DNA from: Hemicentrotus pulcherrimus
Lineage: Eukaryota; Echinodermata; Echinoidea; Camarodonta; Strongylocentrotidae
Assembly: GCA_003118195.1 (NCBI GenBank)
Contig: BEXV01001630.1
Coordinates: 36,623-73,086, forward strand
Length of the DNA: 36,464 nucleotides
Reading direction: 5' to 3'
The position numbers were made by a program, and so were the translations under genes. Positions 78-25,788 of the stretch are shown here, piece after piece. Under the pieces are notes generated by a model. It ran no database searches. It worked only from the letters and a program-made list of their open reading frames with translations, and was not told where the DNA came from. Each line of letters opens with the position of its first letter. Position 1 is the first letter of the stretch.

Positions 78-242
78 CTTTGATGTTGATGCCTCAGAGG
101 CCATCGTTGAGTAGAACTCATCACTCAGCTTCACGCTGGCCAGTTTCAGTGATCGAAGATTCGGCATGGAGCAGAGACCTCTCGCGTAATGAGAGGATGC
201 AGCAGAACCCAGTTTTGCCGTATCGTGCGTTAGCTCCTCAAT
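78..242 (-). CDS. LRR cassette exon L19 (165 nt)
   Basis: 55 open residues: IEELTHDTAKLGSAASSHYARG, second LRR SLKLASVKLSDEFYSTMASEASTSK. It is the last cassette in the window; the array sequence continues to position 1. The donor is GTATAT as in L10. Its first 40 nt match L4 and its second half matches L10, so it looks like a hybrid. Acceptor is CACCAG. Confidence 0.85.
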
Positions 243-853
243 CTGGTGATGTTACAGGACAGAATAGATAGATTTAATAGTATTGACAAGTATTGACGAC
301 TTGTCTAATTTGCATATTTTATATTGTCCTCTACTTAGACTTTTAAAGCAAAGGAGAGAAAGAAGGGAGAGAGAGAAAGAGAGAGCGAGAGGGAGAGAGA
401 GAGAGAGTCCGGGACAGAGGAAGGGACATAATGAGAGTCAGAGAGTTAAAAAAAACATATGAAATGGGTGTGGTAATAGCGAAGAAAGACGAGATGGAAA
501 CAAAAAGTAATTAGTTATAGATAGTTAGAAGGTAGACCATGGTCTGTTCTAGCAGAATTAAAGGGCTATAAATATGTCCTTCTTTTTACAATGCACTTAT
601 AAATGAAATTCCTGCAGCCACTGACAAAATTTAAATAATTACTAAATATAGAACGGGAACTACTATTTATAGGATAAGTACTTTTACACACGGTGTTTTA
701 TGCATCTATATCATGTTATGAAACCAAAGTTCATTCTATTCACATGATTTAATTCCTTGTCAGCATGAACAAACTGCTTATTATATCGATATGATAGTAC
801 TCGTGACATATGTTTATAAATCGTTTCCAACTGAAATCGAGTTTGGGTAAAAC

Positions 854-1018
854 CTTTGATTTTGGTGCCTCAGTGGCCATCGTTGAGAAGAACTCATCAC
901 TCAGCCTCACACCCATCAGATTCAGTGATCGAAGATTTGGCATGGAGCAGAGACCTTTCGCGTAATGAGAGGATGCAGCAGAACCCAGATCTGCGCCCCA
1001 GAGCGTTAGCTACTCAAT
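854..1018 (-). pseudogene. LRR cassette exon L18, with nonsense codon
   Basis: Full-length 165-nt copy, but the third codon is TAG (ATT GAG TAG from 1018 downward) and the donor reads AAAG|GTTTTA instead of GTATAC. The rest stays open (second LRR SLNLMGVRLSDEFFSTMATEAPKSK). Two independent defects mark it as a dead unit, or as an exon that would end the protein if included. A single-base sequencing error could explain the stop but not the donor as well. Confidence 0.8.
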
Positions 1019-1660
1019 CTGGTGATGTGACAGGACAGGTTGAATAGAGTGAAAAGTGTTATCAAGTATACACGACATAAATTGTCTAAGTTTGATATTC
1101 TTACTGTCATTAATGTAACATTATTAACCTCTGATTACACGTTTAAAGCAAGAGAAAGAGAAGGGAGAGAGAGAGAGAGAGAAAAAAAACGAAAATGGGT
1201 GTGGTGAGAGAAAAGAAAGACGAGATAAAGAAATACATACAAATGTGATTAATTAGAATGAGTTAGAAAAGAGAGACCGTGTCTGCTCAAGCAGAATTTA
1301 AGTGTTATTTATGTCCGTCTTTTACAATGCATATTTCAGGTAAATTCCTGCAACTATTGACAAAACGTAAATAATATCTAAATATAAAACTCGAACTACT
1401 ATTTTTTTTTATACGTTTCTTGAAAACACTCTTTTATATGACTCTATATAATGTTTACAACGAATTCATTGTATTCATGTGATTTATTTACTTGTTAGCA
1501 TGGCCAAACTATTTGTAATACCGATATGAGAGTGCTCGTAACTTATAACAAGAAATGAAGTCTTTAAAAAAAAAAAGAACAGTTACCTCATATTAATTTT
1601 AGTATAAAGAGTGTAAACTGGCAACAAATCTTTTTCCAATAGAAATCGTGTTTGGTATAC

Positions 1661-1825
1661 CTTTGATCTTGACGCATTAGTGGCCATCGTTGAGTAGAAC
1701 TCATTACGAAGCTTCACATGGGTGAGATTTAGTGATCGAAGATTTGGCATAGAGCAGAGCCCTCTCCCGTATTGAGAGGATGCAGTAGGACCGAGATCGG
1801 CGCGCCAGTGCTCTAGCTCCTCAAT
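1661..1825 (-). CDS. LRR cassette exon L17 (165 nt)
   Basis: 55 open residues: IEELEHWRADLGPTASSQYGRG, second LRR SLNLTHVKLRNEFYSTMATNASRSK. It is diverged at otherwise fixed scaffold sites (SQYGRG for SHYARG, RNEF for SDEF, TNAS for SEAS), which may mean relaxed constraint. Acceptor is CACCAG, donor AAAG|GTATAC, both intact. Confidence 0.8.
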
Positions 1826-2490
1826 CTGGTGATGTGACAGGACAGGTTAAATAGAGTGAAAAGTATTATCAAGTATAGACGACATGTCTGATTTCAATAA
1901 TATTTGTTATTGTCATCAATGTAATATCATTAACCTCTACTTAGACTTTTAAAACAAGGGAAAGTGAAGGGAGACAGAGGGAGAGAGAGAGAGAGAGAGG
2001 GAGAGAGACAGGGAAAGGAACAGATACATCATGAGAAAATACCCGATGGAAATGGGCGTGGTAAGAGAAAATAAAGACGAAATGAAGAAAGACAAACAAA
2101 GGTGAATATTGATCGATTGGTAAACACAAGAGAGACCGTGTCTGTTCAAGCAGGATAAAAGTGTTACACCCGTCTATTTACAATGCAAATGTAAAATTAA
2201 TTTCCTGCCACTATTGGTTAACTATAAGTAATTTCGTTTGAAAAAATGCGAATTACTATTCATAGGATAAGTTAAGTTATGCAGGCTTTTTTTATGAATC
2301 TATATCGTTATGACACCAAAGTTCATTCTATAACATGATTTGTTTCCATATCAGCACGGCCAAACTGTTGACATGAGAATACTCATGACTTATGTTTATA
2401 AATGATTGCTTTTATCAAGTGTGAAAATACAGTTGCCCCACATGTTTAATTTGAAGAATGCAAAACTCTTTCGAAACAAATCGTTACGAA

Positions 2491-4275
2491 TTTGATTTGA
2501 TTTGATTTATTTACCAACAGCATCACAGTAATACATTTCATACTGTGTGTTTACATACAAGGAGAGAAACTATTGGTTGGTAAAATGGGCCGGATAATAG
2601 CTAGTCGAGCCTAACCCTTTAAACAGCTAAACAAAGTAATTAGGTACAATCAGTTTAGAAAACGTAACACAACAAAAACTAATGAATTTACAATTATAAT
2701 CGATACTTTAAAAAATAAGAATACTTTATAAAGTCTTGTACATACTGATAATGTAGAATATAATTTGTGTACATAACTTTGCAGATTATATCATTCATAA
2801 CTTGTTCAACAAATGACTTGTTACAGAATTCCGAAACCTATTTCTAGATCTTATTGATCTGACATTAATAATAATAAACAATAACAACGTTGCTTATAAA
2901 GCGCTTACCACCGAAGTCTCCTAAGCGCTAATATGTAATCTATTTCAAAATGCACTGCCCACAAAAGACGATGAAAATTGACCTTGTGTCGTTCTAAATT
3001 TTGGAAGACGTAATTTTCCACCTTCGTTTTGTATTGTGGATTAGCTATGCTCTAAAATGTCACAGTGCTCTATCAAAATGTCAGGCAAAGTATCATTGGC
3101 TAGAGCAAACATGAACGTAGAAATTGATAAATCATGTAAATTATACACATTTAGGATTTGAAATCTTTTAAATAATGAAGCTGTTCTCAAATCAATATTA
3201 TGTTATAACACTAACTGCCATTTTCTGCGAATACAATATACTTCTTAGGCTAATCTTATAAGTGCTTGCCCAACCTCTGTTTTATATGAAAAGTGTGGTT
3301 GTATAAATGCTTTATATAACAATATCACCGTACGGCTAGGAACAAAATGTCACAATCTAAATAGCACCCCAACTTTATTTCTAAATACACTGATATACGA
3401 AACGAATATGACTATTCCGAGACAAATGTTTATCAATGTGGACCCCAACAAAAGTGGCAACATCACCCTCTTTAATATCCTCGCCAGCGATTTTCAGTTT
3501 ACCATTCATACATATTTTGTCCCTCCTACTAATTATTAACATGAAATTAGTTTTCATTGATTGAATTGTAAGTTTATTAGCAATGCACCATGTATGTATC
3601 TTTTGTGATTCCATGACATTTGCTCCGGCGACAATTGCTCCGCTGTAAATTTCATACACTGATCGAATGGCTAACTTCAACCCTGGATTCAACACTATAC
3701 CCTACCCTAAACCTAACCCTAAACCTAACATAAAACCCTATTGAAACCCTAACCCTAACCCTACATCTTAGACGAAATAAAGCCCGGAGCAATTGTCGCA
3801 GGAGCAAATGTCGTGTCACCATCTTTTGTATGTTGTTGTTAACTTCATTTACATCAATTTCACCCTGGTCAGCAGGAAAAGTATGAAATAGGTTGGAATC
3901 ATCGGCAAACAGCCGAAAATTGAAATAATCAGTCACTGTTGGCAAACCATTTATATAGATACAAAACAGAATTGGCCCTAATACTGATCCTTGTGGAACA
4001 CCACATCTTACCTTCCTTCTTTCAGATAACGTTTGACCACACGGAACAAACTGAAATCGGTTACTGAGATAGTACTCTAACCATTCAAGAGATAACCGTC
4101 GAATGCCATAACCAGATAGTTTACCTAGTAATATATTATGATTAATTATTGTGTCAAATGCTTTTTTTTTCAAATCGATGAGACCAGAGTTACTTTCCCC
4201 TGATCTATAGATTTCAAAGTTTCTTTATTTCATCTGGAACCTTGCCAGTTTCTAATGACAAGGTAAATATATATG
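2491..4275 (-). mobile_element. 5'-truncated CR1/Jockey-superfamily LINE, degenerate
   Basis: Inserted in the array unit next to L16. On the minus strand the reverse transcriptase fragment (about 4185-3845) shows KKAFDTI with the first catalytic Asp region, YLSNRFQ, CGVPQGSVLGPILFCIYI and FADDSNLF (the YADD box as FADD). It continues after a MITE insertion as WCIANKLTI (about 3590-3550) and on to 3381. The low-coordinate end is a short TTTGA tandem repeat at 2491-2510, as expected for a LINE 3' tail. The 2520-3380 part is 3' ORF/UTR with no clear frame. Boundaries at the high end are approximate. The copy is broken and cannot be active. Confidence 0.78.
3607..3820. mobile_element. MITE with 9-bp target duplication inside the LINE
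   Basis: A 214-bp element flanked by a perfect 9-bp duplication ATCTTTTGT at 3598-3606 and 3821-3829. Inner terminal inverted repeats of 28 bp (3615-3642 and 3785-3812) match at 27 positions; the outermost 8 bp match less well. The centre holds ACCCTA/AACCCTAAC-like tracts (about 3690-3765), resembling telomeric repeats but far from any chromosome end signal. A 9-bp duplication fits a Mutator-like or related DNA transposon. Removing the element and one duplication restores the LINE reverse transcriptase frame. Confidence 0.82.
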
Positions 4276-4301
4276 CCAGTTGAAATACTGTTTGGGTATA
4301 C

Positions 4302-4466
4302 CTTTGATCTTGATGCCTCAGTGGCCATCGTAGAGTAGAACTCATCACTCAACTTCACACTGTCCAGATCAAGGGATCGAAGATTTGGCATAGAGCAGAG
4401 ACCTCTCGCGTAATGAGAGGATGCATGAGAACCCAGATCTGCCGTCTTGTGCTTTAGCTTCTCAAT
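4302..4466 (-). CDS. LRR cassette exon L16 (165 nt)
   Basis: 55 open residues: IEKLKHKTADLGSHASSHYARG, second LRR SLDLDSVKLSDEFYSTMATEASRSK. Acceptor is CACCAG, donor AAAG|GTATAC. A LINE insertion begins only about 25 nt beyond the donor on the sense strand, leaving the donor itself intact. Confidence 0.86.
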
Positions 4467-5144: not shown

Positions 5145-5309
5145 CTTTGATCTTGATGCATCAGAGGAGATCGTCGAGTAGAACTCATCACTCAGCTTCA
5201 CACCGTCCAGATCCAGTGATCGAAGATTTGGCATAGAGCAGAGACCTCTCGCGTAATGAGAGGAAGCAGCAGAATCCACATCTGCGCCCTTGTGCGTTAG
5301 CTTCTCAAT
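5145..5309 (-). CDS. LRR cassette exon L15 (165 nt)
   Basis: 55 open residues: IEKLTHKGADVDSAASSHYARG, second LRR SLDLDGVKLSDEFYSTISSDASRSK. The acceptor is CACTAG, the only TAG acceptor among the cassettes; it remains usable. Residues ADVDS replace ADLGS. Donor is AAAG|GTATAC. It is the partner of L13. Confidence 0.85.
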
Positions 5310-5934: not shown

Positions 5935-6099
5935 CTTTGATTTTGATGCCTCAGAGGCCATCGTCGAGTAGAACTCATCACTCAGCTTCACACCGACCAG
6001 ATTCAGTAAGCGAAGAATTGGCATTAAGCAGAGACCTCTCGCGTAATGAGAGGATGCAGCAGAACCCAGATCTGCCGTATCGTGCTTTAGCTCCTCAAT
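5935..6099 (-). CDS. LRR cassette exon L14 (165 nt)
   Basis: 55 open residues: IEELKHDTADLGSAASSHYARG, then LMPILRLLNLVGVKLSDEF. Ile replaces Asn in the usual PNL. It is the partner of L12 in a two-unit duplication. About 90 nt upstream of its acceptor on the sense strand, the intron is interrupted by a 2-kb insert of unknown type. Acceptor is CACCAG, donor AAAG|GTATAC. Confidence 0.87.
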
Positions 6100-6187
6100 C
6101 TGGTGATGTGACAGGACAGGTTGGATATTGTGAATAGTATTATCAAAAATAGACGACATGTCTGATGTCAAAATTCTTAGTATCATT

Positions 6188-8190
6188 ACCCTACAAATTT
6201 TCGGAGATTGCGCCGCAGCCGCTTGGAATTTTAAATTGTCGTTTCATGATTTCATTTTTGTCCTCAAGTCTTACACATATTTTGATACCATTTTAGTCGA
6301 AATCGGATATACTATATATATATATATATATTATATAAGGTGTTACATTGTTACATAACAATTAGTAATGCGCATGTCATCAAAAGGTGTTATAATTGCA
6401 TATATTCATGTATAAGCAGAAATGTGAATACAGGTTTAGATGTATTTCTTCATAAGTGGGAGATATGAATTGATATCAAATTGCTTTGATAATGTTTCTC
6501 AAAGTAACTTGATGTATTCCAGAACAAAATAATACATAACAAATAAAACAATGGATATAATAAGAAATATAACTAACAAAACAATACATAAGAAAATAAA
6601 ATGATGAATTTCGAACTTTTTTTCGGATATGAGCAGTGATATGCAGATGGTTAGTGGAGAAATATTACTCTTCAGTGAGAAAGTGGGTAAAATTATTGTT
6701 TTGGGCTTTGCTCACAGTGCTAAAAATACTTTCAACAACAACAAAACAAATAATCATAATTAGCGTGTTCATTATTTATGCAAATTAACCTATGCATTTT
6801 TCAAATTTCATAAAAAATAATGAAACTTCATGAATTTGAAATGAAGGAAGCATTTATTCAATACGTTTTCAAAATTCACCACTAGTCTAGAGACAAATAA
6901 GTAGGGTTTTCTGTAAAGTGAATACAATTAGTATTTTGCATAATTAATAAGGCTTTAACGACAACATTTTTATATTAGGACATTATTGTTCCTTTCGTGA
7001 ATTTCTACAAACATGCAAATTTTCGCGTTCATCGAACATTCAGGAATTTTCAAAAATTAAAAAGGGAAACAAAACCAAATTTAGTGCAAGGACAGAGAGG
7101 GGAAAGGGAAGAGAATAGGATAGACAAGGAAGAAGGTGAAGGAGAAGGAAAGAAAGAGAGAGAGTTCATAAGAGTTCAAGCAAGTACATTGTTCAGACGG
7201 GGGCTTCCTAGTCGGAAGAGAATATGATAGACAAGGAAGCAGGTGAAGGAGAAGGAAAGAGAGAGAGAGAGTTCATAAGAGTTCAAGCAAGTACATTGTT
7301 CAGACGGGGGCTTCCTTGTCGGCGTAAGTTAAAGGTAAAGACCAGTATTGGAAATGCCCCAATTTCAAAAAATGAAATGGAAGCTCTCATTACATCTTTC
7401 TGTGTATAGTGCTTGTAACTTTACGAAGAATGGGCAAAATTTCTTATCATTTTGATGATTACAGAACCTTGCAGATGCTTGATGCTAGATGATCAATCTT
7501 TTCTGATTGATTCCACAACGTTTCTTTCACAATGCAATCGCATGACCATAACTGGTCTTTACCTTTAATCCCTGCAGCGGTAAATATCTCATGAATATAT
7601 GACTCAAACCATTAGTTGTCCACACCCGCTCTTACTCGGACCAACTTGATTTAGTTGACACGACCTTCCACCGAACCAGTCTTACCGCACTAATCGACCT
7701 CAACTCACCTTCAGCATCAAAACCGTGCGAAATCTAATTTTCAGTTTCGATTGTAAACAAACAACCCTCTTGAACTTGTCACATATACTCCGAATGCCAA
7801 ATGAGAGCATCAGCACGTTAAACTTACGCTACCCTCTGGTCGTGTTAACGCGTTACCCCTGGAAAAAGCCAGGAGTAAATCGGTCGGCGTAAAGGTAGGC
7901 GTAGCTAACACGACCATCGTTCAGACAATCACTACTCCGACCTTTACGCCGACCTCACCATATTAACACCGACTAGCTCTTAACACGACCTTTACCCCGA
8001 CCAAAATTGCCATTGTCTGAACAAGACTTAAACTGTCAAGCTTTAATATTGCGAGAAGCCTATTGAAATTTACAAAGGGAGAAACCTGTTGAAGGTATGT
8101 GCATGGTTCTCTGCGTTATATACATCTGAATACACTATGGTTCTGTTTGCCAAGTCCTGCATCCACAAATAATCGTAACATTTTCTCTAA
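6188..8190. mobile_element. unclassified 2-kb insertion in an array intron
   Basis: The unit sequence breaks off at about 6187 and resumes at about 8190 (AACATCATTAACCTCTACTTAG), so the block between is an insertion. No convincing coding frame. It contains an AT dinucleotide run at 6308-6332, a 107-bp tandem duplication (7111-7320) and short perfect inverted repeats such as 7882-7896 with 7940-7954. The foldback structure suggests a non-autonomous DNA transposon, perhaps composite; family not recognised. Confidence 0.5.
7111..7320 (+). repeat. 107-bp tandem duplication
   Basis: Two near-identical copies, 7111-7217 and 7218-about 7320. Each runs from GAGAATA-GATAGACAAGG through a GA-rich stretch to GTTCAGACGGGGGCTTCC. 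Only a few bases differ. Both copies are open in a plus-strand frame, but composition is simple and no protein is suggested. Confidence 0.85.
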
Positions 8191-8471
8191 TTTAACATCA
8201 TTAACCTCTACTTAGATTTTTAAAGCAGGGGAAATAGGAGGAGGGATAGAGAGAGAGAGAGAAAGGGGGGACAGACACATGGACATAGTGAGAGATAGAG
8301 AAAAAAACCTGAAAGGAAATGGGCGTGGTAAGAGAAAAGAAAAACGAGATGAAGAAAGACAAACATAATATGTGAATAATCATAGATAGTTAGACAAGAG
8401 AGGCCGTATCTGTCAAAGCAGAATAAAAGTGTTATATCCGTATATTTAAAACGCACATGAAAAATTTATAT

Positions 8472-8506
<35 letters not shown>

Positions 8507-8567
8507 TCATCATCAATAGTGATCTGTCAGTTTATGACAGGTTCAGTGACCCATTCAAAATTCTATA

Positions 8568-9031: not shown

Positions 9032-10172
9032 TCATTGAAAGAAGGCAGCTCTTGCCAGAGCTGAGTGCAAGTTGACCTCTTTGGCAGACTTGCCAACCTC
9101 AGTCAGCACACTGCCTAGATATTTGAAGTGGTTGACTTGCACAAGTCTGTTGCCATTTATCATGATAGTTATTTCTTTTGTCTTGCCTTTACTTATCATC
9201 ATCACCTTCGTTTTCTTCTCGTTGATTCTCATGCCATAGCTCCTGACCACTTGATCCATCGGCAGTGACAGCGAGCGTGGCCTGATCATCAGCATACCGT
9301 ACAGACCTAATCAACCCTCCTCCAACGATCACTCCTTCTAACATTGCCAGAGCTTCTCTTACCATTGCCACTGCATAGATATTGAAGAGAAGAGGAGACA
9401 GAAGGCATCCCTGACGTGTTCCACGTCCAATGACGGCTGGTTCACAGACCCCATCTCCAACGCGAACGCTGGCAGTCTGAGACATGTACAAGGATGCAAC
9501 CAATCTACGGTCTTTCCAATCAACACCAATGGCTGACAGCACTTCCATCAACCTAGTCCAATTGACACGATCAAATGCCTTTTCGTAGTCCACAAAACAG
9601 ATATATAGGTCCTGATCATGCTGTATACATCTCTCACTTAGTATTCTCATCACAGCGATTGCTTCTCGAGTGCCGACCCCTTTTCGAAAGCCAAATTGGT
9701 CTATTCCAATATAATCTCTGGACCTCGCTTCAATCCGATGGTAGAGTACCTTTAGTAATACTTTTGAAGCATGTGATACCAGGCTGATAGTGCGGTGATC
9801 CTCGCATCTGATTGCCTTTGTGGTCTTCTTGATGGTTATCAACTGGCTTCTTGTCCAATCATCTGGCCAGATTCCCTGCTCATATATATGTTGACATAGT
9901 TCAGTCAGTGCCATTATGCCAGCTTCCCCCATATTCTTGAGCATTTCAGCCGTAATGTTATCTTCACCAGCCGCCTTTTTCTCCTTTAACTGACAGACTG
10001 CACCACGCACCTCTTCTGGAAGTAAGGAAGGGCCAACGTCATCTGCCATGACATAATCTTCAATTTCCAAGGGCAGAGTGACTGGTTTATTGTCCCTTGC
10101 ATACAACTCCTCTACGTACTGACGCCATCTCTCCTCTATGTCCCGTTGGTTGGTTAGCAGTTCTCCATTCAC
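9032..10172 (-). pseudogene. RTE reverse transcriptase domain, frameshifted
   Basis: Open from 10172 to 9189 with RT motifs in order: FRKGVGTREA, ICFVDYEKAFDRVNW (first catalytic Asp), GTRQGCLLSPLLFNIY and RYADD (9296-9285). A frameshift just after YADD moves the reading to a second frame (9295-9032) that continues with RINEKKTKVM and HFKYLGSVL. It is followed by another stop before the C-terminal segment at 8888-8568. Conserved catalytic residues are present; the copy is dead by frameshift. Confidence 0.87.
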
Positions 10173-10340
10173 ATCCAGAACCCCTACTGTGTTGTTTTTT
10201 TCCTTTCCCTTTGTTCATATCGTCACTAAGAACTTTCACTTTATTGTACATAAGGTCTGTTCTGCCCCTGCGGTTTAGATCCTCTAATTCCTTGAATTGT
10301 TGTTCCCACCAGTTAGTTAGTGCTGTGTCTGTAGCTCTTC

Positions 10341-11588
10341 TTAGTTCGTTATTAAGCCTCTTGTAACCCCTTTTCCTTCTGCAGAGTTGTCATTTTTCAG
10401 CGTTTCTCTCTCATCCATCGTATCTATCATTTCCTCCGTTATCCATGGTTTACGGATCTTCTTTCTCTTACTGAACCCAACGTTTTCTTCAGCACTACCA
10501 TGCAAGGCACCTTTTAGATTTTCCCATTCCTCTTCAACCGAGGGCCCCTCTGGGAGTTCTTTAGAGTTCAGCCGGGATTGGACACCACGTGCATACACTA
10601 ATGCATTCTGTTTCAACTTTGCATTATCTATTTTTGTCACTTTACAGCTCCCTCTCACCTTCTTTAGTTTCAGCTGCACTGTCATCAGCACCAAGTTGTG
10701 ATCCGAGTAGCAGTCTGCGCCTGGATATGCCAGGGACTTTTTAACACTATTCTTGTACCGCTGGTTCACAAGAATATAATCAATCTGGTAGCGTGCGATA
10801 TCCCCAGGTGTTTTCCATGTATAGCGACGTCTAGGGTGCTGTTCAAAGAGAGTGTTGGTCATCACCAGTTTCCTCCTCTTGCAAAACTATACTAGCATAT
10901 TTCCTCTATGGTTTTTCCTGCCAAGACCCCACTCTCCAACAGCATCATCATGTTTTTGTCAGCTTCCAACAACAGCATTCCAGTCACCGAGAAGAATACG
11001 ATAGTCATTTCCTTTCCCTTTGTCCAGCTCCTCATCGATCATGTCGTTAATATCCTCCACATATTTGTCCTAATAGTCACTTGTAGGCATGTACACAACC
11101 AGCACAACGATGTCAACTGGTGATCCTTTTATTCTGACTGCTAACAGTCTATCGCTTACAGCCTCTATCCTACATACATTCTTTGCAGTATGCTTGTCCA
11201 GCAAAAGGGCAACACCACGTTGTCTTGCTTTTCCTCCAGAGTATATCACTCTGAATTCATCACTTATGAAGTCACCACTGTCGAGCCATCTAACCTCAGT
11301 AAGAGCAAGCAGGTTCATGTTATAACGTCGCATCTCACGTTTGATGGTTTCTATCTTGTCGTCTCTCATTGTTCTAACATTCCAAGTGCCAACGCGCGAG
11401 TGAGGACTTTGCTGGATGACGACCTGACCATCCTCACTGCTGGCCCTGCCGGACGCGACAACCTGGCATCTAGTGTCTAGAGTCCCGTTAACGTCTTTGG
11501 CTTGATTTGAATTGACAACTATTGGGTCATCCTGAGGATAATACTGCGGTGGGTTCCCGTTGCCTTCCGCGGGACCAATTTTCATCAT
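10341..11588 (-). pseudogene. RTE endonuclease domain, disrupted
   Basis: Two open segments on the minus strand. 11588-11070 contains GTWNVRTMRDDK, LALTEVRW and the VALLLDKHTAKNV region. 10865-10341 contains the YQIDYILVNQRY and YSDHNLV (SDH) motifs. This is the APE-type endonuclease that nicks target DNA. Stops near 11070, and further ones between the two segments and below 10400, break the frame. Endonuclease core residues are recognisable but the protein cannot be made whole. Confidence 0.82.
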
Positions 11589-12112
11589 GGCTGGACTCCA
11601 TTAGAAGGTTTGCTTTCACTACAGCTGACGAGTACCCTCCACCCGGATTCATGATAAACTAGCCCCCGCTGGACATCATCCCAGTATTTCTATGGACTCG
11701 GGGAAGGCTGTCAGGTGCTACACCTTGCCCAAGTGTGACCTGTAACTTTGCATTAAAGGGTATGGATGTTCAATACCATAAGGCCCTAGAGGCCCGCAAA
11801 CCCATTCTATATATATAAGAAATATTTTCTAAAGAAAATGCATAATACTATTTATAGGATAAGACATTTTATGCAGGCTTTGTTTATGAATCTATGTCAT
11901 TATTACACCAAAGTTCATTCTATTCACATGATTTGTTTCCTTGTCAGCATAGCCAAACTATTTATTGAATTGATATGAGAGTGCATGTGACTAATGAAAA
12001 TGAATGATTATTTTGTTTAAAGTGTTTTTAAAAAAAGTGACCGCATAAGTTGAGTTTGAAGAATGGACAACTGGCAACAAATCGTTTCCAATAGAAATCG
12101 TGTTCGGTATAC

Positions 12113-12277
12113 CTTTGATCTTGATGCATCAGAGGAGATCGTCGAGTAGAACTCATCACTCAGCTTCACCCCGTCCAGATGCAGTGATCGAAGATTTGGC
12201 ATAGAGCAGAGACCTCTCGCGTAATGAGAGGATGCAGCAGGACCCAGATCTGCCGTCCTGTGCTCTAGCTCCTCAAT
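12113..12277 (-). CDS. LRR cassette exon L13 (165 nt)
   Basis: 55 open residues: IEELEHRTADLGPAASSHYARG, second LRR SLHLDGVKLSDEFYSTISSDASRSK. It is closest to L15 in the second half (HLDG against DLDG, same ISSDASRSK ending) and to L11 in the first half. Acceptor is CACCAG, donor AAAG|GTATAC. Confidence 0.87.
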
Positions 12278-13016: not shown

Positions 13017-13181
13017 CTTTGATTTTGATGCCTCAGAGGCCATCGTCGAGTAGAACTCATCACTCAGCTTCACACCGACCAGATTCAGTAAGCGAAGATT
13101 TGACATTAAGCAGAGACCTCTCGCGTAATGAGAGGATGCAGCAGAACCCAGATCTGCGTCCCTGTGCTTTAGCTTCTCAAT
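13017..13181 (-). CDS. LRR cassette exon L12 (165 nt)
   Basis: 55 open residues: IEKLKHRDADLGSAASSHYARG, then LMSNLRLLNLVGVKLSDEF. RLL in place of RSL and NLVG at the exposed strand are shared with L14. Its upstream intron is also nearly identical to that of L14, so the two are products of a segmental duplication. Acceptor is CACCAG, donor AAAG|GTATAC. Confidence 0.86.
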
Positions 13182-13840
13182 CTGGTGATGTGACAGGACA
13201 GGTTGAATATTGTGAATAGTATTATCAAAAATAGACGACATGTCTGATGTCAAAATTCTTAGTATCATTAATGTAACATCATTAATATCTACTTAGACTT
13301 TTATAACAAGAGAGAGGGGGACGGAGACAAAAAACAGAGAGAGAGAGGGATAGAAAGAAAATACCCGAAGGGAAATAGGGTATGGTAATAGAAAAAAAAG
13401 ACAAGATGAGAAGAAGAAAAAAATGTCATCACTTTAGATAGTTAGAAGAGAGAGAACGTGTCTTTTTAAGCAGAATAGAAGTGTTATATCCCTCTGTTTA
13501 CAATGCACATGTAAAATTAACTTCCTGCGACTACTGACAAAATTAACATAATTTCTAAATATAGAATGCAAAATACTATTTATAGAATATATGCTTTTAA
13601 AACACGTTTTTATAAGAATCTATATCATAATGACACCAAAATTCATTGTATTCACGGGATAGATTTCCTTGCTAGCATGGCAAAACAATTGGTAATATTG
13701 ATATGAGAGTACTCGTAACTGATGAAAATAAATGATGTCTTTTTTTAAAGTGTTAACAAAAACAGTTACCCCATAAGTTGAGTTAGAAGAATGAAAAACT
13801 GGCAACAAATCATTTCCAATAGAAATCGTGTTCGGTATAC

Positions 13841-14005
13841 CTTTGATCTTGATGCATCAGAGGAGATCGTCGAGTAGAACTCATCACTCAGGTTTATACG
13901 GTTGAATTCCAGTGATCGAAGATTTGGCATAGAGCAGAGACCTCTCGCGTAATGAGAGGATGCAGCAGAACCCAGATCTGCCGTCCTGTGCTCTAGCTCC
14001 TCAAT
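13841..14005 (-). CDS. LRR cassette exon L11 (165 nt)
   Basis: 55 open residues: IEELEHRTADLGSAASSHYARG, second LRR SLEFNRINLSDEFYSTISSDASRSK. The EFNRIN block is otherwise found only in L2. The ending ISSDASRSK is shared with L13 and L15, so the exon combines features of different relatives. Acceptor is CACCAG, donor AAAG|GTATAC. Confidence 0.87.
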
Positions 14006-14681: not shown

Positions 14682-14846
14682 CTTTGATTTCGATGCCTCA
14701 GAGGCCAGCGTTGAGTAGAACTCATCACTCAGCTTCACGCTGGCCAGTTCCAGTGAGCGAAGATTTGGCATGGAGCAGAGACCTCTCGCGTAATGAGAGG
14801 ATGCAGCAAAACCCAGATCCGCGTTGTAGTGATCAAGGTACTCAAT
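14682..14846 (-). CDS. LRR cassette exon L10 (165 nt)
   Basis: 55 open residues: IEYLDHYNADLGFAASSHYARG, second LRR SLELASVKLSDEFYSTLASEASKSK. The donor is GTATAT rather than GTATAC and the acceptor is ATTACCAG. The donor variant and the second-half sequence match L19, showing the two share part of their ancestry. Confidence 0.86.
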
Positions 14847-15534: not shown

Positions 15535-15699
15535 CTTTGATTGGGATGCCTCACAGGCCATCGTTGAGTAGAACTCATCACTCAGCTTCACACTGTTCAG
15601 ACCAAGGGATCGAAGATTCGGCATTAAGCAGAGGCCTCTCGCGTAATGAGACGATGCAACAGAACCCAGATCTGCCGTCATGTGCCTTAGCATCTCAAT
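15535..15699 (-). CDS. LRR cassette exon L9 (165 nt)
   Basis: 55 open residues: IEMLRHMTADLGSVASSHYARG, second LRR SLGLNSVKLSDEFYSTMACEASQSK. Glycine at residue 33 and NS at 35-36 are unique to this copy. The acceptor is slightly altered (ATAACCAG); the donor is AAAG|GTATAC. Confidence 0.86.
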
Positions 15700-16376: not shown

Positions 16377-16541
16377 CTTTGATCTTGATGCCTCAGAGGC
16401 CATCGATGAGTAGAACTCATCACTCAGCTTCACACAGTCGAGACGCAGTGATCGAAGATTTGGCATTAGGCAGAGACCTCTCGCGTAATGATACGATGCA
16501 GCAGAACCCAGATCTGCGTTCTCGTGTTTTAACTTCTCAAT
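16377..16541 (-). CDS. LRR cassette exon L8 (165 nt)
   Basis: 55 open residues: IEKLKHENADLGSAASYHYARG, then LMPNLRSLRLDCVKLSDEF. Arg at residue 33 and DC at 35-36 distinguish the exposed face. Acceptor is CACCACCAG, donor AAAG|GTATAC. The frame stays open far upstream into the intron because the CT-rich tract lacks stops in this frame; the exon start is set by the acceptor conserved in all copies. Confidence 0.87.
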
Positions 16542-17232
16542 CTGGTGGTGTGACAGGAAAGGTTGAATACAGTGAATAATATTATCAAGTATAGACGACA
16601 TGTCTGATTTAAATATTCTAAGTACCATCAATGTAACATTATCAACCTCTACATAGAGTTTTTTGCAAGAGAAAAGGAAGGGAGAGAGACGGAGAGAGAG
16701 AAAGAAACTGGGACAGAGATCGAGAAATAATTCGAGACAGAGAGAGATAGAGAGAGAAACCCGAGGGAAATGGATGTGGTAAGAGCAATGAAAGACGAGA
16801 TAAAGAAAGACAAACAAATGTAATTAATTCTAGATGGATAGAAGAGGGAGACCGTGTCTGTTCTTGCAAAATAAAAGTGTTATGTCTATTAAAAATGCAC
16901 ATGTAAAATTAACTTCCTGCGACTACTGACAAAATTAACATAATTTCTAAATATAGAATGCAAAATACTATTTATAGAATATATGCTTTTAAAACACGTT
17001 TTTATAAGAATCTATATCATAATGACACCAAAATTCATTGTATTCACGGGATAGATTTCCTTGCTAGCATGGCAAAACAATTGGTAATATTGATATGAGA
17101 GTACTCGTAACTGATGAAAATAAATGATGTCTTTTTTTAAAGTGTTAACAAAAACAGTTACCCCATAAGTTGAGTTTGAAGAATGCAAAACTGGCAACAA
17201 ATCGTTTCCAATAGAAATCTTGTTTGGTATAC

Positions 17233-17397
17233 CTTTGATCTTGATGCCTCACAGGCCATCGTCGAGTAGAACGCATCGCTCAGCTTCACACGGCTGAGAT
17301 TCAGTGATCGTAAATTTGGCATGTAGCAGAGACCTCTCGCGAAATGAGAGGATGCAGTAGAACTCAGTTGTGCCGTCTCGTGCTCCAGCTCCTCAAT
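17233..17397 (-). CDS. LRR cassette exon L7 (165 nt)
   Basis: 55 open residues, beginning IEELEHETAQLSSTASSHF; the second LRR is SLNLSRVKLSDAFYSTMACEAS. It is among the more diverged copies, with Phe for the usual Tyr in SHY, Tyr before MPN, and DAF for DEF. Acceptor is CACCAG, donor AAAG|GTATAC. The intron on its 3' side contains a 283-bp stretch identical to the intron 3' of L11. Confidence 0.84.
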
Positions 17398-17460
17398 CTG
17401 GTGATGTGACAGGACAGAATGAATAAGTTGAATAGTATTATCAAGTATAGACTACATGTA

Positions 17461-20250: not shown

Positions 20251-20370
20251 CTTTGATCTTAATGCCTCAAAGGCCATCGTTGAGTAGAACTCATCATCAC
20301 TCCGCGTCAAATAGGGCATATACAGTGAAACAGAACTCATATCTGTGTTCCAGTGCTGTAGCCGCTTAAT
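20251..20370 (-). CDS. LRR cassette exon L6 (short, 120 nt)
   Basis: 40 open residues: IKRLQHWNTDMSSVSLYMPYL, then TRSDDEFYSTMAFEALRSK. A 45-nt deletion, in frame, removes the SHYARGLC helix and the SLDL strand, so a normal second LRR cannot form. Acceptor (CACCAG) and donor (AAAG|GTATAC) are intact. It resembles L1 and L3 in length and in the EALRSK ending. Confidence 0.6.
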
Positions 20371-20865: not shown

Positions 20866-21084
20866 ACCCCATTTTGACACTAAAGTGCACTGTATTCACG
20901 TGATTTATTTCCTTCTCAGCATTGTCAAACTATTTGTAATATTGATTTGAGAGTACTCGTAACTGATGAAAATAAATGATGTCTTTTTGAAAAGTGGTAA
21001 CAAAAACAGTTACCCCATAAATTGAGTTTGAAGAATGCAAAACTGCCAACAAATCGTTTCCAATAGACATCGTGTTTGGTATAC

Positions 21085-21249
21085 CTTTGATCTTGATGCC
21101 TCAGAGGCCATCGATGAGTAGAACTCATCACTCAGCTTCATACAGTCGAGAAGCAATGATTGAAGATTTGGCATAGAGCAGAGAGCTCTCGCGTAATGAG
21201 AGGATGCAGCAGAACCCAGTTTTGCCGTATCGTGCATTAGATGCCCAAT
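21085..21249 (-). CDS. LRR cassette exon L5 (165 nt)
   Basis: 55 open residues starting IGHLMHDTAKLG; the second LRR is NLQSLLLDCMKLSDEFYSS. The glycine at residue 2 and QSL in place of RSL are unusual. Acceptor is CACCACCAG, donor AAAG|GTATAC. Residues 35-36 (DC) are shared with L8, and both have YSSMASEAS, suggesting a common parental unit. Confidence 0.86.
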
Positions 21250-21894
21250 CTGGTGGTGTGACAAGACAGGTTGAATAAGTAGAATAGCATTAACAAGTAT
21301 ACACGACATGTCTGATTTGAATATTATCATTGTCGTCAATGTAACATTATCAACCTCTACATAGACTTTTTCAAGAGAAAGAGAAGGGAGAGAGATAGAG
21401 AGAAAAACACGAGGGAAGGGTGTGGTAAGAGCAAGGAAAGAGGAGATGAAGAAAAACAATAAAATGTGATTCTAGATAGTTAGGAAAGATAGACCCTGGT
21501 CTGTTCAAGCAGAATTAAAGTGTTATGTCTGCCTATTTGCAATGCACATGTAAAATTAACTTCCTGAAACTACTAAAAAAAATTACATAACTTCTAAATA
21601 TATAAAGCGAAATACTTTTTATAAAATACGTGCTTTTAAAACACGATATTATATGAATCTATATTATGATTGTGAAACCAAAGTTCATTGTATTCAAGTG
21701 ATTTATTATCTTGTCAGCATGGCCAAACTTTTTGTAAAAAGACTAATATTGATATGAGAGTAGTCGCAACTTATGAAAATAAATGATGTCTTCAAAAAAA
21801 AAAGTGTTTAACAAAACAGTTACCCCATGAAATGAGTTCGAAGAATGCAAAACTGGCAATAAATCATTTTCAATAGAAATCGTGTTCGGTATAC

Positions 21895-22059
21895 CTTTGA
21901 ACTTGATGCCTCAGTGGCCATCGTTGAGTAGAACTCATCACTCAGCTTCACATTGTACAGAATGAGTGATCGAAGTTTTGGCATAGAGCAGAGACCTCTC
22001 GCGTAATGAGAGGATGCAGCGGAACCCAGTTTTGCCGTATCGTGCGTTAGCTCCTCAAT
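21895..22059 (-). CDS. LRR cassette exon L4 (165 nt)
   Basis: 55 open residues. The first LRR starts IEELTHDTAKLGS and the second carries SLILYNVKLSDEF, a hydrophobic/aromatic choice at the exposed positions not seen in other copies. Acceptor is CACCACCAG, donor AAAG|GTATAC. Its first 40 or so nucleotides are identical to those of L19, 22 kb away. Confidence 0.85.
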
Positions 22060-22102
22060 CTGGTGGTGTGACAGGACAGGATGAATAAGGTGAATAGTAT
22101 TA

Positions 22103-22856
22103 TATATTAAATGACCTATATCGATACTGATGCACGATTGGTCAAAATGCTGTCACATGACCATTGCTACAAGGATGAGAAGCGTTATATTCAGAGGTAT
22201 GACGTAAATTGCGTCATTATATCCAGAGGTATAACGTAATTTACGTAATACCTTAAGCTCACTCGACAAGTTCAATGCACTTCATACGTACACCCCCGCT
22301 TCGCACACAAATATACACGCATTGCATTATATTGCAGCGCGAAATATGAAATTGCAACAAAATTATTTTCGTCAAAATGGCAGCTTAAACGAGCCGTGAG
22401 GAAGAATTTGACGAATAATTGATAAAAAATACTAAGAAAGTCACCAATGTAGCTGAGAATGTGCTGCAAGCTTACAGTGAATACAGGATTTACAACAATT
22501 TCAAAAACATGTATAGCAACTGAACTGAGTAGTGAGTAAGTTTACTTTTCAGCCTTTGATCATTAATGCTGAGGTTCGTAAATCGAATTGTGAATTGTAC
22601 AGTGAGCGTTCCATGATAGCATTGTGATATGGATTGCAAAGACATTATAAAAAGGTGAGTGATTTCGGTTTTGACATTTTGTAAATGTCTTACAGCACCA
22701 TCCACTTCTGTTAGCATTCATCCCGATATTATAAGTAATACTAGAGTCTAGTCCATGCAGGACCAGGACCAGAACCAAGTACTGCAGCTCTCGTGCTGGT
22801 AAAATTGCACACACAGAAGAGACTGCATCTTGTTTTGTATCTTATAATAGGTCATC
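22103..22856. mobile_element. unclassified insertion in the intron between L3 and L4
   Basis: The unit intron stops at about 22102 (GAATAGTATTA) and resumes at about 23053. The first part of the inserted DNA has short inverted ends (ATGACCTAT at 22111-22119, ATAGGTCAT at 22847-22855) and an internal direct repeat built on AGAGGTATRACGTAA (about 22190-22250). No coding frame was recognised. Confidence 0.45.
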
Positions 22857-22863
22857 ATAATAT

Positions 22864-23045
22864 AACAGATATTGACTTTTTCCGTGGGGAACAATGTAAC
22901 ATTTCATTTCCCTTGGGAAGTTATATCTTTGCCTCAGAATACTACAGTTTTCCTTAGCGCGTAAAATATAATGTCCCTCGACAAAAACATAACTCCCTCG
23001 AGCATCTCAAATGTTATATTGCCCCTCTAGGTTATCAATATCTGT
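22864..23045. mobile_element. 182-bp MITE-like inverted-repeat element
   Basis: Ends ACAGATATTGA and TCAATATCTGT, with imperfect inverted complementarity continuing inward about 40 bp (GTGGGGAACAATGTAACATTT against the right arm). Flanked by a 7-bp direct repeat ATAATAT at 22857-22863 and 23046-23052, which may be a target duplication, although it is AT-rich. Confidence 0.6.
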
Positions 23046-23236
23046 ATAATATTTTATACAAGTATAGAGGACATGTTTAATTTAAATATTCTCATTGTCA
23101 TCAAAGTCACAATTCCAACCTCTTCATAGAATTGTTTTGTAAAAGAAAGAGAAGGGAGAAAGAGAAAGAGAGAGAAAGAGAGAGAAAGAGAAAAGAGAGA
23201 GATAGAGAGAACAACCTGGGGGAAATGGGTGTGGTA

Positions 23237-23455
23237 ATGCCTCAGTCACACCTTCGCGTATTTGACTTGCGTAATGCTGTGTATTTATGGCAAGCCTTTT
23301 AACATTCATTCCTATTTCTTGATATCAAGAAATGATTTTCTGTTGTAAAGCAATGGTAATACTCGATATCAAGAAATAAGAATAAATATTAAAACGACTT
23401 GCCATAAATGGGCAGCAATACGCAAGCTAAATACGCAAAGGTGTGACTTATGCAT
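23237..23455. mobile_element. 219-bp mariner-like MITE with TA target duplication
   Basis: About 58-bp terminal inverted repeats beginning ATGC and containing AGTCACACCTT and GCGTATTT, flanked by TA at 23235-23236 and 23456-23457. Joining the flanks restores the unit motif GTGGTAAGAGCAAGG exactly. The interior includes the perfect palindrome ATTTCTTGATATCAAGAAAT. Non-coding. TA duplication and long inverted repeats fit a Tc1/mariner-derived MITE. Confidence 0.82.
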
Positions 23456-23497
23456 TAAGAGCAAGGAAAGACTAGATAAAGAAAGACGAACAAAAGT

Positions 23498-23828
23498 TTT
23501 AGAATCATATTTATTAACAAATGTTTTTTTTAACTCTTGCCAAAGAATGAAACGAGGCTCGACTAGCACTTGTGCTAACTTCTAGCTCCCATTAACAACT
23601 TCACCTAAATACAGTAATACACATATTTATGTATATATCTTTTGTACATTTAATAGTATGCAGAGCTATGTCTAAATATCGTTTTTTAAACCATTACTGT
23701 TCAATCAACATTATATATGTTATCTATACATGTATCAGTGTTTAGTCTTTGCACTGTATGATTTTTTATTTGTACTGTCATTATTGTGATGTGTTGTTGT
23801 TAATAAATTCAAATTCAAATTCAAATTT
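23498..23828 (+). mobile_element. LINE 3'-end fragment
   Basis: A 331-bp 5'-truncated insertion ending in a repeated ATTCAA tail (about 23805-23828), with a 6-bp target duplication AAAAGT at 23492-23497 and 23829-23834. Such tails are typical of CR1-like LINEs. Only 3' UTR remains. Confidence 0.75.
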
Positions 23829-24190
23829 AAAAGTAATTAATTATAGATAGTTGGAAAAGAGTATTATGTCTATTTACAATGCACATGTTAAATTAACTTC
23901 CTGCGACTACTGACAAAATTTAATGCGAAATACTTTTTATAGTATATGCTTTTAAAACACGCTTTTATATGAATCTATATCATTTTGACTCCAACGTTCA
24001 TTGTATTCACGTGGGGTTTTTCATCGTCAGCACGACCAAACTATTGATCATATTGATAAGAAAGTGCTCATTACTGATGAGAAAAAAAAGGATCTCTTAA
24101 AAAAGTGTGAAAACAGTTACCCGAAAGTTCAGTTTAAAGAACGCAAAAATGGCTTTAAAACGTTTCCAGTAGTAATTGTATTTGGTATAC

Positions 24191-24307
24191 CTTGTATCTT
24201 AATGCCTCAGAGGCCATCGTTATGTTGAACTCATCACTCAGCTTCTCATAGGGCATATCTTCTGCAGCAGAACTCAGACCTGGGTTCATGAGCGTTAGGT
24301 CCTCAAT
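24191..24307 (-). CDS. LRR cassette exon L3 (short, 117 nt)
   Basis: Encodes 39 residues, starting IEDLTLMNPGLSSAAEDM and ending LSDEFNITMASEALRYK. The first LRR start and the second LRR end are kept; the central SHYARGLCSMPNL region is missing (48 nt, in frame). Acceptor CACCAG and donor CAAG|GTATAC are intact. It shares length and the EALR ending with L1, so these short forms may be a sub-class rather than independent decay. Confidence 0.62.
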
Positions 24308-24989
24308 CTGGTGATGTGACAGGACAGGATGAATAGGGTGAATAGGATGATCAAGTATAGACGACATGTCTAATTAAAATATTCTCAATGTCTTCAATGT
24401 AACATTACCAACCTCTAAATATACTCTTTTTTTTTCAAGAGAAAGAGAAGGGAGAGAAAGAGTCTGGGACAGAGACAGAGATATAGAGAGGGAGAGACGG
24501 GCTAAACGCACAAGGGAAATGGGTGTGGTAAGAGCAAGGAAAGAAGAGATCAAGAAAAACAATCAAATGTGATTAATTCTAGATAGTTAGAAAAGATAGC
24601 CCGTGGTCTGTGCAAGCAGAATTAAAGTGTTACGTTTATATTAACAATGCACATGTTAAATTAACTTCCTGCCACTACTGACAAAATGTACATAATTTCT
24701 TAATATAGAATGGGAAATACTGTTTATAGTGTACGTGCTTTTAAAACACGCTCTTATATTATATGAATCTATATCATTAAGACATCCAAGTTTATTGCCT
24801 TAAGGTGATTTATTCCTTGTTAGCATGGCCAAACTATTTGTTATATTGATATGAGAGTACTTGCAACTGATGAAAATAAATGATGTCTTTTAAAAAAAGT
24901 GTTAACAAAAATAGTTACCTCATAAGTTGAGCATGAAGAATTTAAAACTGGTAACATATCATTTCCAATAGAAATTATGTTTGGTATAC

Positions 24990-25154
24990 CTTCGATCTTG
25001 ATGCCTCAGAGGCCATCGTCGAGTAGAACTCATCACTCAGGTTTATACGGTTGAATTCCAGTGATCGAAGATTTGGCATAGAGCAGAGTGCTCTCGCGTA
25101 ATGAGAGGATGCAACAGAACCCAGTTTTGCCGTCTCTTCCGTTAGATCCTCAAT
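24990..25154 (-). CDS. LRR cassette exon L2 (165 nt)
   Basis: Encodes 55 open residues. The first LRR starts IEDLTEETAKLG and the second carries SLEFNRINLSDEF. The donor is GAAG|GTATAC. The acceptor AG is present, but the sequence just upstream is unrelated to the other units (AAATACACGCCACCAG), so the usual pyrimidine tract is lost and splicing here may be poor. The EFNRIN segment is shared with L11, 11 kb away, while the rest of the exon is not specially close to L11. That points to a local conversion event. Confidence 0.72.
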
Positions 25155-25164
25155 CTGGTGGCGT

Positions 25165-25385
25165 GTATTTAAAAGGTAAATTTAACGTTACCATCTTTTG
25201 TTTGCCATAAATTAAGTAGAAAAGGGCCCGTGGACACAGTGTTTGGTCTTGCAATACTTGAGCTTAATGATAAAGGAGGTCGAAAACATGGGAGGGGGAC
25301 ATATGATATTGTGCTGCCCCCCCCCCCCCCCCCCCCCCNTGATTGAAGCCCATGCAGAAATAAATTGCCTACTGACATAGTGTTA
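25165..25385. other. foreign segment with poly(C) and an undetermined base
   Basis: Replaces the part of the array unit just upstream of the L2 acceptor. It contains 22 consecutive C (25317-25338) followed by one N at 25339, the only ambiguous base in the window. No frame or repeat family recognised. The homopolymer length is probably unreliable, and an assembly join is possible here. Confidence 0.6.
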
Positions 25386-25671
25386 AACGAATCCTAGTAT
25401 AGAATCCGAAATACTATTTATAGGACACGTGATTTTAAATTAGATTTTATATGAATCTCTATCATTATGACACCAAAGTTAATTTTGTTAACTCGATTTA
25501 TTTCCTCGTCAGCATGACCAAACTTACTATCATATTGATATGGGAGAGCTCATAACTAATGGAAATAATGTTCTCTTCAAAAAGTGTGAAAAACAGTTAC
25601 CCCATAAGTTCAGTTTAAAGAACGCAAAACTGGCAAAAAATCATTTCCAATAGAAATCGTGTTTGGTATAC

Positions 25672-25788
25672 CATTGATCTTAGTGCCTCAGAGACCATCG
25701 TTGAGTGGAACTCATCACTCAGCTTCACAGTGGGCGTATCCGGTGCATCAGAAATCATTTCTGGGTTCGAGTGAAATAGGGTCTCAAT
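25672..25788 (-). CDS. LRR cassette exon L1 (short, 117 nt)
   Basis: First recognisable cassette after the capping exon. It encodes 39 residues beginning IETLFHS and ending TVKLSDEFHSTMVSEALRSM. The flanks keep the array acceptor (CACCAG) and donor (GTATAC), but the last residue is Met (AATG|GTATAC), so the donor lacks the usual AAG. Compared with the 165-nt cassettes, 48 nt in the middle are absent, removing the SHYARGLCSMPNL block that links the two LRRs; the frame is preserved. It could be a functional short LRR or a decayed unit near the array edge. Open frame and symmetric phase favour coding use. Confidence 0.6.

What the first reader, a model, noticed from the sequence alone, without database searches (positions are those of the whole stretch)
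78..25788. Library of about 19 interchangeable LRR cassette exons in one NLR gene
Nineteen exon copies follow one Death-NACHT head. All begin and end in phase 0, all have lengths divisible by three, and 18 are open. Any subset can be spliced together in frame, so the locus could produce many LRR solenoids, in the manner of Dscam exon arrays or VLR cassettes. Sequence shows the array and phases; alternative use is inference. A constitutive protein with more than 30 LRRs is the alternative.
Basis: partly seen in the sequence, partly recalled or inferred. Interest (0 to 1): 0.88.

Follow-up and report, generated by a model that had tools for sequence, protein, structure and literature searches.

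The report
Immune receptor gene with repeated binding cassettes
One animal immune-sensor gene carries a row of at least 19 look-alike, splice-ready exons whose variable letters sit on the predicted binding face of the protein, so it holds a set of binding modules, but whether cells choose among them is untested.

Summary
On the minus strand a Death-NACHT head (e1-e4, 35246-29107) is followed by 19 homologous exons, C01-C19 (25788-78): 16 of 165 nt, two of 117, one of 120. 19 of 19 are AG/GT-flanked, phase 0 and multiples of three; 18 of 19 are open. The broken one, C18, has a TAG at codon 3 and the weakest donor. Each long cassette looks like two LRRs. Amino-acid variation concentrates on the textbook concave-face positions: dN/dS 1.89 against 0.54 elsewhere, ML omega 3.68 against 0.50. 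Shared tracts show the two variable blocks being reshuffled. Elsewhere in the genome: a 3942-nt N-run follows C19 (room for about five more units), then non-cassette exons; a paralogue has the same plan with two cassettes. So the array is modular, expandable and under diversifying selection. Alternative use stays inference: no transcripts could be examined. Frame-preserving LRR exons are known in human and zebrafish NLRs, and spliced LRR exon arrays with concave-site selection in brown-algal ROCO genes. I call it a new variant of a known kind.

The parts
35165..35246 (-). e1: first exon seen, with ATG
   Evidence: start taken as the ATG that is in frame with e2-e4
34198..34496 (-). e2: Death-like domain exon
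   Evidence: Pfam Death E 5.1e-4, 20.6 bits, below the 22.6 cut-off
30745..32303 (-). e3: NACHT and winged-helix exon
   Evidence: Pfam NACHT 5.8e-23, NOD2_WH at its cut-off; NLRP3 is the best PDB match, 3.2e-13
29107..29298 (-). e4: first LRR-like exon, 192 nt, phase 0-0, distant homologue of the cassettes
   Evidence: cassette profile iE 9.4e-6; no Pfam match
26360..26418 (-). relic cassette: acceptor and first codons only
   Evidence: acceptor profile E 2.2e-10
25672..25788 (-). C01, short cassette, 117 nt
24990..25154 (-). C02, 165 nt
24191..24307 (-). C03, short cassette, 117 nt
21895..22059 (-). C04, 165 nt
21085..21249 (-). C05, 165 nt
20251..20370 (-). C06, short cassette, 120 nt
17233..17397 (-). 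C07, 165 nt
16377..16541 (-). C08, 165 nt
15535..15699 (-). C09, 165 nt
14682..14846 (-). C10, 165 nt
13841..14005 (-). C11, 165 nt
13017..13181 (-). C12, 165 nt
12113..12277 (-). C13, 165 nt
5935..6099 (-). C14, 165 nt
5145..5309 (-). C15, 165 nt (acceptor CTAG)
4302..4466 (-). C16, 165 nt
1661..1825 (-). C17, 165 nt
854..1018 (-). C18, 165 nt, broken: TAG at codon 3 and degraded donor GTTTTA
78..242 (-). C19, 165 nt, last cassette before the N-run
13502..13784 (-). 283-nt intron tract identical to 16894-17176 (recent conversion or duplication)
13866..13939 (-). 74-nt tract inside C11 identical to 25015-25088 inside C02; carries the second variable block between cassettes 11 kb apart

Best explanation
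This is one NLR gene of an animal: Death-like domain, NACHT, a first LRR-like exon, an expanded row of two-LRR cassette exons, then non-cassette exons beyond an N-run. Shown: every cassette is a self-contained splice module in phase 0; the cassettes multiply, die and share short tracts; change is restrained over most of the cassette and accelerated at the residues predicted to line the concave face. Inferred: the cassettes are spliced in genomic order into a long curved solenoid whose inner face binds ligands, and since any cassette can be left out without harm to the frame, transcripts vary in how many and which cassettes they hold. I expect a default of including most open cassettes with frequent skipping, C18 always skipped, rather than a tightly regulated one-from-many choice. 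Diversity then comes mainly from germline turnover of the array and second from splicing.
For: Frame, phases and splice sites; more open frames than neutral change would leave; NACHT and the NLRP3 match. Selection, on the 15 open long cassettes: dN/dS 1.89 against 0.54; 0 of 100,000 random 10-codon sets reached the nonsynonymous variation of the ten LxxLxLxx x-positions; ML omega 3.68 against 0.50, likelihood ratio 44.4 against omega 1; nonsynonymous variation is highest at this register among 18 shifts. The seven most variable codons lie in the two strands of the cassette model. 15 of 15 open long cassettes have different 7-residue signatures. Mosaic exchange: summed longest shared runs of the 16 long cassettes exceed all 1000 permutations. 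Modularity in evolution: the paralogue on C2338 has the same head and first LRR-like exon but two cassettes; C1347 has two readable cassettes; the exons after the array are shared between loci. By a human donor matrix from memory, 18 of 19 cassette donors score 2.3 to 5.7 of 12.6 bits and C18 -0.2, weak enough to favour skipping.
Against: No transcript was seen; inclusion, skipping and even splicing from e4 into C01 (a 3318-nt intron) are inferred. Head donors e1 and e4 are as weak or weaker by the same matrix (4.1 and 1.4 bits), and the common cassette donor still ranks in the top 8% of the 1928 GTs on the gene strand, so weak donors may not mark skipped exons here. The LRR call on cassettes is soft: single cassettes reach at best E 0.033 for a Pfam LRR model (3 matches to LRR models among 15 scanned), seven joined cassettes hit no PDB chain at E up to 1, and the cassette model has no fold match at E 0.001 or better. 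Only one of five AF2 models was confident (85.1; the others 55.0-61.9). The tree behind omega ignores recombination, which the data show. The synonymous estimate at ten codons is noisy: shift +5 gives pN/pS 1.68 against 1.62 at the true register. The ten sites were fixed from the textbook pattern, but after I had seen the variability table.
Confidence: 0.6

Rival explanations
1. Regulated combinatorial library: cells or challenges select particular subsets of cassettes, so that one gene yields a repertoire of solenoids.
For: Everything needed is present: phase-0 modules, distinct signatures in 15 of 15 open long cassettes, concave-face selection. Pyrimidine tracts of 18 nt or more sit 108-151 nt upstream of 13 of 19 cassettes, a possible splicing-control site. 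Brown-algal ROCO genes of similar layout are reported to be alternatively spliced (PMC11378527).
Against: No RNA. No docking-selector complementarity at k=14. Nothing tested here separates regulated choice from plain optional skipping. The pyrimidine tracts may be only a simple repeat carried with the unit.
Confidence: 0.2
2. Constitutive giant LRR protein: all open cassettes are always included and only dead C18 is skipped.
For: Donors of most cassettes are the same (AAG|GTATAC in 15 of 19), so nothing in them singles out exons; [quoted passage not shown]
Against: The paralogue has two cassettes, so length is not fixed in this family; C18 shows that at least one cassette must be left out; donors are weak by the recalled matrix.
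Confidence: 0.13
3. Decaying or non-expressed array: the gene is a pseudogene or transcripts never enter the array.
For: C18 is broken; relic cassette at 26360-26418; retroelement fragments in two introns; weak donors.
Against: 15 of 16 long exons are open where neutral change predicts about 9; all 19 lengths are multiples of three; head open over four exons; restrained change outside the concave sites.
Confidence: 0.05
4. Somatic DNA assembly of cassettes, as in lamprey VLRs, or Dscam-type mutually exclusive splicing.
For: Superficial: many similar modules behind one constant head.
Against: 19 of 19 cassettes have splice sites and lie in line with the head; lengths are multiples of three; no docking complementarity found at k=14.
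Confidence: 0.02

Closest known systems
Human NLR LRR exon modularity and NLRP3 exon-5 skipping (Hoss et al. 2019, PMC6642158; outline and sections 6, 7, 12 read)
   Same: NACHT receptor; in NLRP genes each LRR exon encodes two LRRs; LRR exons strictly frame-preserving; skipping shown for NLRP3.
   Different: There 171 nt per NLRP3 LRR exon, 28+29 aa. Here 165 nt, phase 0, at least 19 cassettes, the 16 long ones 84.6% identical on average, with concave-face diversifying selection.
Brown-algal LRR-ROCO candidate immune receptors (PMC11378527; outline, passages and section 11 read; Zambounis 2012 and the NB-ARC-TPR paper only as cited there)
   Same: Tandem LRR exons of one length and phase, 16 in one gene shown; positive selection at concave sites; alternative splicing of the LRR exons reported.
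   Different: ROC-COR GTPase rather than NACHT; 72-nt phase-2 one-LRR exons; a very distant lineage, so convergent.
Zebrafish NLR-B30.2 family (PMC4852459; search passages read)
   Same: LRRs on single exons, variable number, one LRR type more than 20 times in groups 2b and 4; a fixed last LRR in other groups.
   Different: Its authors call the LRRs not particularly variable and point to B30.2; here the LRR cassettes are the variable part.
Plant CNL paralogues with selection on xxLxLxx sites (PMC3113787; passages read)
   Same: Strong evidence of Ka/Ks above 1 only at solvent-exposed LRR residues, plus gene conversion.
   Different: There the variation is between whole genes; here between exons of one gene.
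Arthropod Dscam exon clusters and lamprey VLR cassettes (recalled; Dscam also as cited in PMC11378527)
   Same: One constant frame plus many variable modules.
   Different: Dscam choice is mutually exclusive; VLR cassettes are joined in DNA. Neither feature is indicated here.

Membership tests
NLR (NACHT-LRR receptor) | NACHT NTPase | tested here: met
   Pfam NACHT 5.8e-23, 82 bits; NLRP3 best PDB match
NLR (NACHT-LRR receptor) | Death-fold N-terminal domain | tested here: inconclusive
   Death 20.6 bits, cut-off 22.6; the one PDB match is unrelated at E 0.29
NLR (NACHT-LRR receptor) | C-terminal leucine-rich repeats | tested here: met
   Seven joined cassettes: LRR_4 34.2 bits, cut-off 27 (EAL at 41.9 and CdaS_N at 34.4 bits also pass and I take both as spurious); model strand-helix-strand-helix. 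Against: single cassettes reach at best E 0.033, no PDB chain matches
Modular LRR exons as in human NLRs | Frame-preserving exons with one boundary position, two LRRs each | tested here: met
   19 of 19 multiples of three, phase 0; 16 of 19 have the length for two LRRs, the three short ones about one
Modular LRR exons as in human NLRs | Alternative splicing of LRR exons in RNA | not testable with these tools
   no transcript data for this genome
Brown-algal LRR-ROCO | ROC-COR GTPase module | tested here: not met
   the head is NACHT; no ROC or COR match for e2, e3 or e4 at E up to 1
Brown-algal LRR-ROCO | Concave-face diversifying selection across LRR exons | tested here: met
Dscam-type mutually exclusive exon cluster | Docking-selector RNA pairing (recalled) | tested here: inconclusive
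   no reverse-complement 14-mer from the e4-C01 intron in three or more of 18 array introns; shorter or other placements not tested
Dscam-type mutually exclusive exon cluster | One exon per transcript | not testable with these tools
   needs RNA
VLR cassette locus | Cassettes without own splice sites, joined in DNA (recalled) | tested here: not met
   19 of 19 cassettes are AG/GT-flanked and in line with the head

The most novel reading that the evidence does not exclude
A germline-encoded combinatorial immune receptor in an animal without V(D)J or VLR: individual cells splice different subsets of about 24 LRR cassettes behind one NACHT engine, and infection shifts which subsets are made.
Probability: 0.12. 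Interest if true: 0.92.

Novelty: new variant of a known kind. Interest (0 to 1): 0.6.

Why it matters
It offers one gene in which an old question, whether an animal diversifies an intracellular receptor by splicing LRR modules, can be tested with a single amplicon. It also suggests that NLR annotation can miss such modules: of 15 single cassettes scanned, the best Pfam LRR match has E 0.033, so published counts of NLRs without LRRs (for example 22 NACHT-only of 53 in the sea cucumber Chiridota heheva, PMC8913654, passages) might partly be annotation loss; that last point is my inference.

Tried and rejected
Chance repeats: rejected by E-values and conserved frames. Assembly duplication of one exon: rejected, every pair of the 16 long cassettes differs by at least 9 of 165 nt. 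More intact cassettes in the large gaps of the window: searched with exon, acceptor and donor profiles; beyond the 19, only a relic at 26360-26418 and a weak donor remnant at 2451-2491, E 0.0025. Cassettes beyond the N-run in C1615:21334-32680: none at E up to 1 by DNA profile; best peptide there E 0.78. Docking-selector pairing: none at k=14. Monophyly of the array against its paralogues: not seen; the four outside cassettes fall among the array's own in a poorly supported tree, so either the diversity predates the gene duplication or exchange has blurred it. Pfam support for the exons after the array: none (LRR_4 E 0.18 for one, nothing for the other), so I call them LRR-like by eye only. 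Fold search of the cassette model: no match at E 0.001 or better, human NLRP1 LRR at ranks 17 and 21 with E 4.0 and 4.3. Relatives in viral contigs: none. Papers: ten searches; judged by titles and starts of abstracts, none listed reports this array or tandem LRR cassettes in an echinoderm NLR, but only openly licensed papers are held.
Full report
What was checked. The window is G000:C1615:36623-73086, plus strand, of a 414-Mb assembly in 4189 contigs. From recalled features of its dispersed repeats and NLRs I think it is an echinoderm; I did not test this.

Anatomy. The gene is on the minus strand. e1 (35246-35165, with ATG), e2 (34496-34198, Death-like), e3 (32303-30745, NACHT and winged helix) and e4 (29298-29107) join into one open frame that ends in phase 0. 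Pfam gives NACHT at 5.8e-23; Death is just below its cut-off. The closest solved relative of e3 is NLRP3. e4 is a distant relative of the cassettes and ends in the same way.

The array. Nineteen exons follow, C01 to C19, from 25788 down to 78. Sixteen are 165 nt, two 117 and one 120; 19 of 19 have AG before and GT after and read in phase 0; 18 are open. The typical spacing is 841.5 nt (median of the 14 short spacings); the other four are 2.2 to 6.2 kb, and reverse-transcriptase sequences lie in two of them. C18 has a TAG at codon 3 and a donor that scores -0.2 bits, against 2.3 to 5.7 for the other 18 (the matrix is a human-like one from memory, maximum 12.6). If C18 were included, everything after it would be lost, yet C19 is intact. 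So either C18 is skipped, or C19 and all beyond are not made from such transcripts.

Constraint. The 16 long exons are on average 84.6% identical; flanking intron stretches of equal length are 55-74% identical with 2.8-4.2 gap openings per pair. The long exons have no gaps, but they were picked for one length. Under neutral change from their consensus 9.2 of 16 would be open; 15 are. Across three loci cassettes have lengths 117, 120, 159, 165 and 171: each is a multiple of three.

Selection on the binding face. In the LRR pattern LxxLxLxx the x positions are solvent-exposed (textbook; also PMC3113787, passages). I set the ten x codons (2, 3, 5, 7, 8, 30, 31, 33, 35, 36) from that pattern, after I had seen the variability table; they include codons 2, 30 and 31, which are conserved. 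For the 15 open long cassettes dN/dS is 1.89 there (1.71-2.21 leaving one out) and 0.54 elsewhere; 0 of 100,000 random sets of ten codons have as much nonsynonymous variation. A two-class codon model gives omega 3.68 and 0.50; fixing the first at 1 costs 22.2 log units. Both rest on few synonymous sites, and the second on a tree that ignores recombination. Among 18 register shifts nonsynonymous variation is highest at the true register (0.390), though pN/pS at shift +5 is 1.68 against 1.62. The AF2 cassette model has strands at 3-10 and 33-38 and helices at 13-25, 27-31 and 41-53, the order expected of two LRRs; only one of five models was confident. Seven codons chosen after the fact (3, 5, 7, 8, 33, 35, 36) hold 590 of 1436 amino-acid differences between the 15 open long cassettes, and all 15 signatures differ.

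How firm is the LRR call? Seven joined cassettes pass Pfam LRR_4 (34.2 bits, cut-off 27), but two unrelated models also pass, EAL and CdaS_N, probably by repetition. Single cassettes reach at best E 0.033 (15 scanned). No PDB chain matches the joined cassettes, and the model finds no fold at E 0.001 or better, with NLRP1 LRR among weak hits. The call rests mostly on the repeated LxxLxL pattern, the model, and the place behind a NACHT domain.

Turnover. Summed longest shared runs of the 16 long cassettes exceed all 1000 site permutations. C02 and C11 share 74 identical bases that carry the second variable block (0 of 33 differences) while their first blocks differ at 9 of 33; C04 and C19 share the first block (0 of 33) but differ at 7 of 33 in the second. 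A 283-nt intron tract is identical between 13502-13784 and 16894-17176. A relic cassette lies at 26360-26418. This looks like birth, death and short-tract exchange.

Outside the window. C1615:32681-36622 reads N, ending at the window's edge; it may be an assembly gap or a withheld stretch. Beyond it, C1615:21334-32680 has no cassette but aligns over 1755 nt at 76% with the sequence after the last cassette of C1347, and over 916 nt at 74% with that of C2338. By eye it holds an LRR-like exon with a phase-0 start, matched in all three loci, and another at C1615:29200-29580, matched in C1347 only (2 of 2 genome matches). Pfam does not confirm either. By alignment the readable part resumes about 60 nt after a cassette's end (my reading); at 841.5 nt per unit the N-run would hold 4.7 units, if its length is true. 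So the array appears closed on both sides by non-cassette exons.

Paralogues. The cassette search of the whole genome gave 23 matches: C1615 16, C1347 2, C2338 2, and 3 weak ones (E 3.5e-4 to 8.0e-4) on C3267, C1005 and C1150; the tool calls such counts lower bounds. C2338 has a Death-like exon (64%), a NACHT exon (58%), an e4-like exon (61%) and two cassettes, with no N-run and no further profile match between e4 and the next exon. C1347 has two readable cassettes below an N-run. C2932 has a head (60-62%) and e4, but its downstream part reads N, so its array is unknown. The genome has 63 NACHT-exon matches, some of them pieces of one exon. The outside cassettes do not fall outside the array in the tree.

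How it likely works. Shown: module structure, constraint, diversification, turnover. Inferred: ordered splicing into a solenoid behind the NACHT engine; ligand contact through the concave face; optional skipping. The most economical reading is a long solenoid by default with frequent optional skipping. Regulated choice is possible and is the exciting case. Nothing here tests it.

Against what is known. Frame-preserving LRR exons and skipping are established for human NLRs (PMC6642158; outline, sections 6, 7 and 12). [quoted passage not shown] Brown-algal ROCO genes combine tandem LRR exons, concave-site selection and alternative splicing (PMC11378527; outline, passages, section 11). The present locus puts those features, apart from shown splicing, into an animal NLR. 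It is therefore a new variant of a known kind.

Noticed in passing
9189-10214, 10341-10886, 11070-11600 (minus strand): Non-LTR retrotransposon remnants inside the C13-C14 intron: reverse transcriptase (RVT_1 2.2e-22) and open frames that look, by eye, like its endonuclease part.
   Followed up: partly
3652-4224 (minus strand): Another reverse-transcriptase fragment (RVT_1 1.5e-11) in the C16-C17 intron.
   Followed up: partly
array introns, 108-151 nt upstream of 13 of 19 cassettes: Pyrimidine tracts of 18 nt or more on the gene strand; 20 of the 22 in the window lie in 1-26300. Possible binding sites of a polypyrimidine-tract protein, or just a simple repeat carried with the unit.
   Followed up: partly
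C01 25672-25788, C03 24191-24307, C06 20251-20370: Three short cassettes lack the middle of the unit and would make about one LRR of 39-40 aa; all lie among the first six of the array.
   Followed up: no
about 8175-8516 and 23034-23501: Pieces of the array's intron repeat without an exon profile match beside them: possibly units whose exon was lost.
   Followed up: partly
L018:964-1134 (C2338): A paralogous cassette of 171 nt has a repeated TTGCAT-like hexamer at the first strand (ELTHLHLHLHLRSA).
   Followed up: no
25339: A single N in the window, in the C01-C02 intron.
   Followed up: no
G000:C2932:1-13872 and C1347:55844-66536: Unreadable stretches fall just where the rest of two related loci should be; C2932 (head) and C1347 (cassettes and later exons) could even be parts of one gene.
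   Followed up: no
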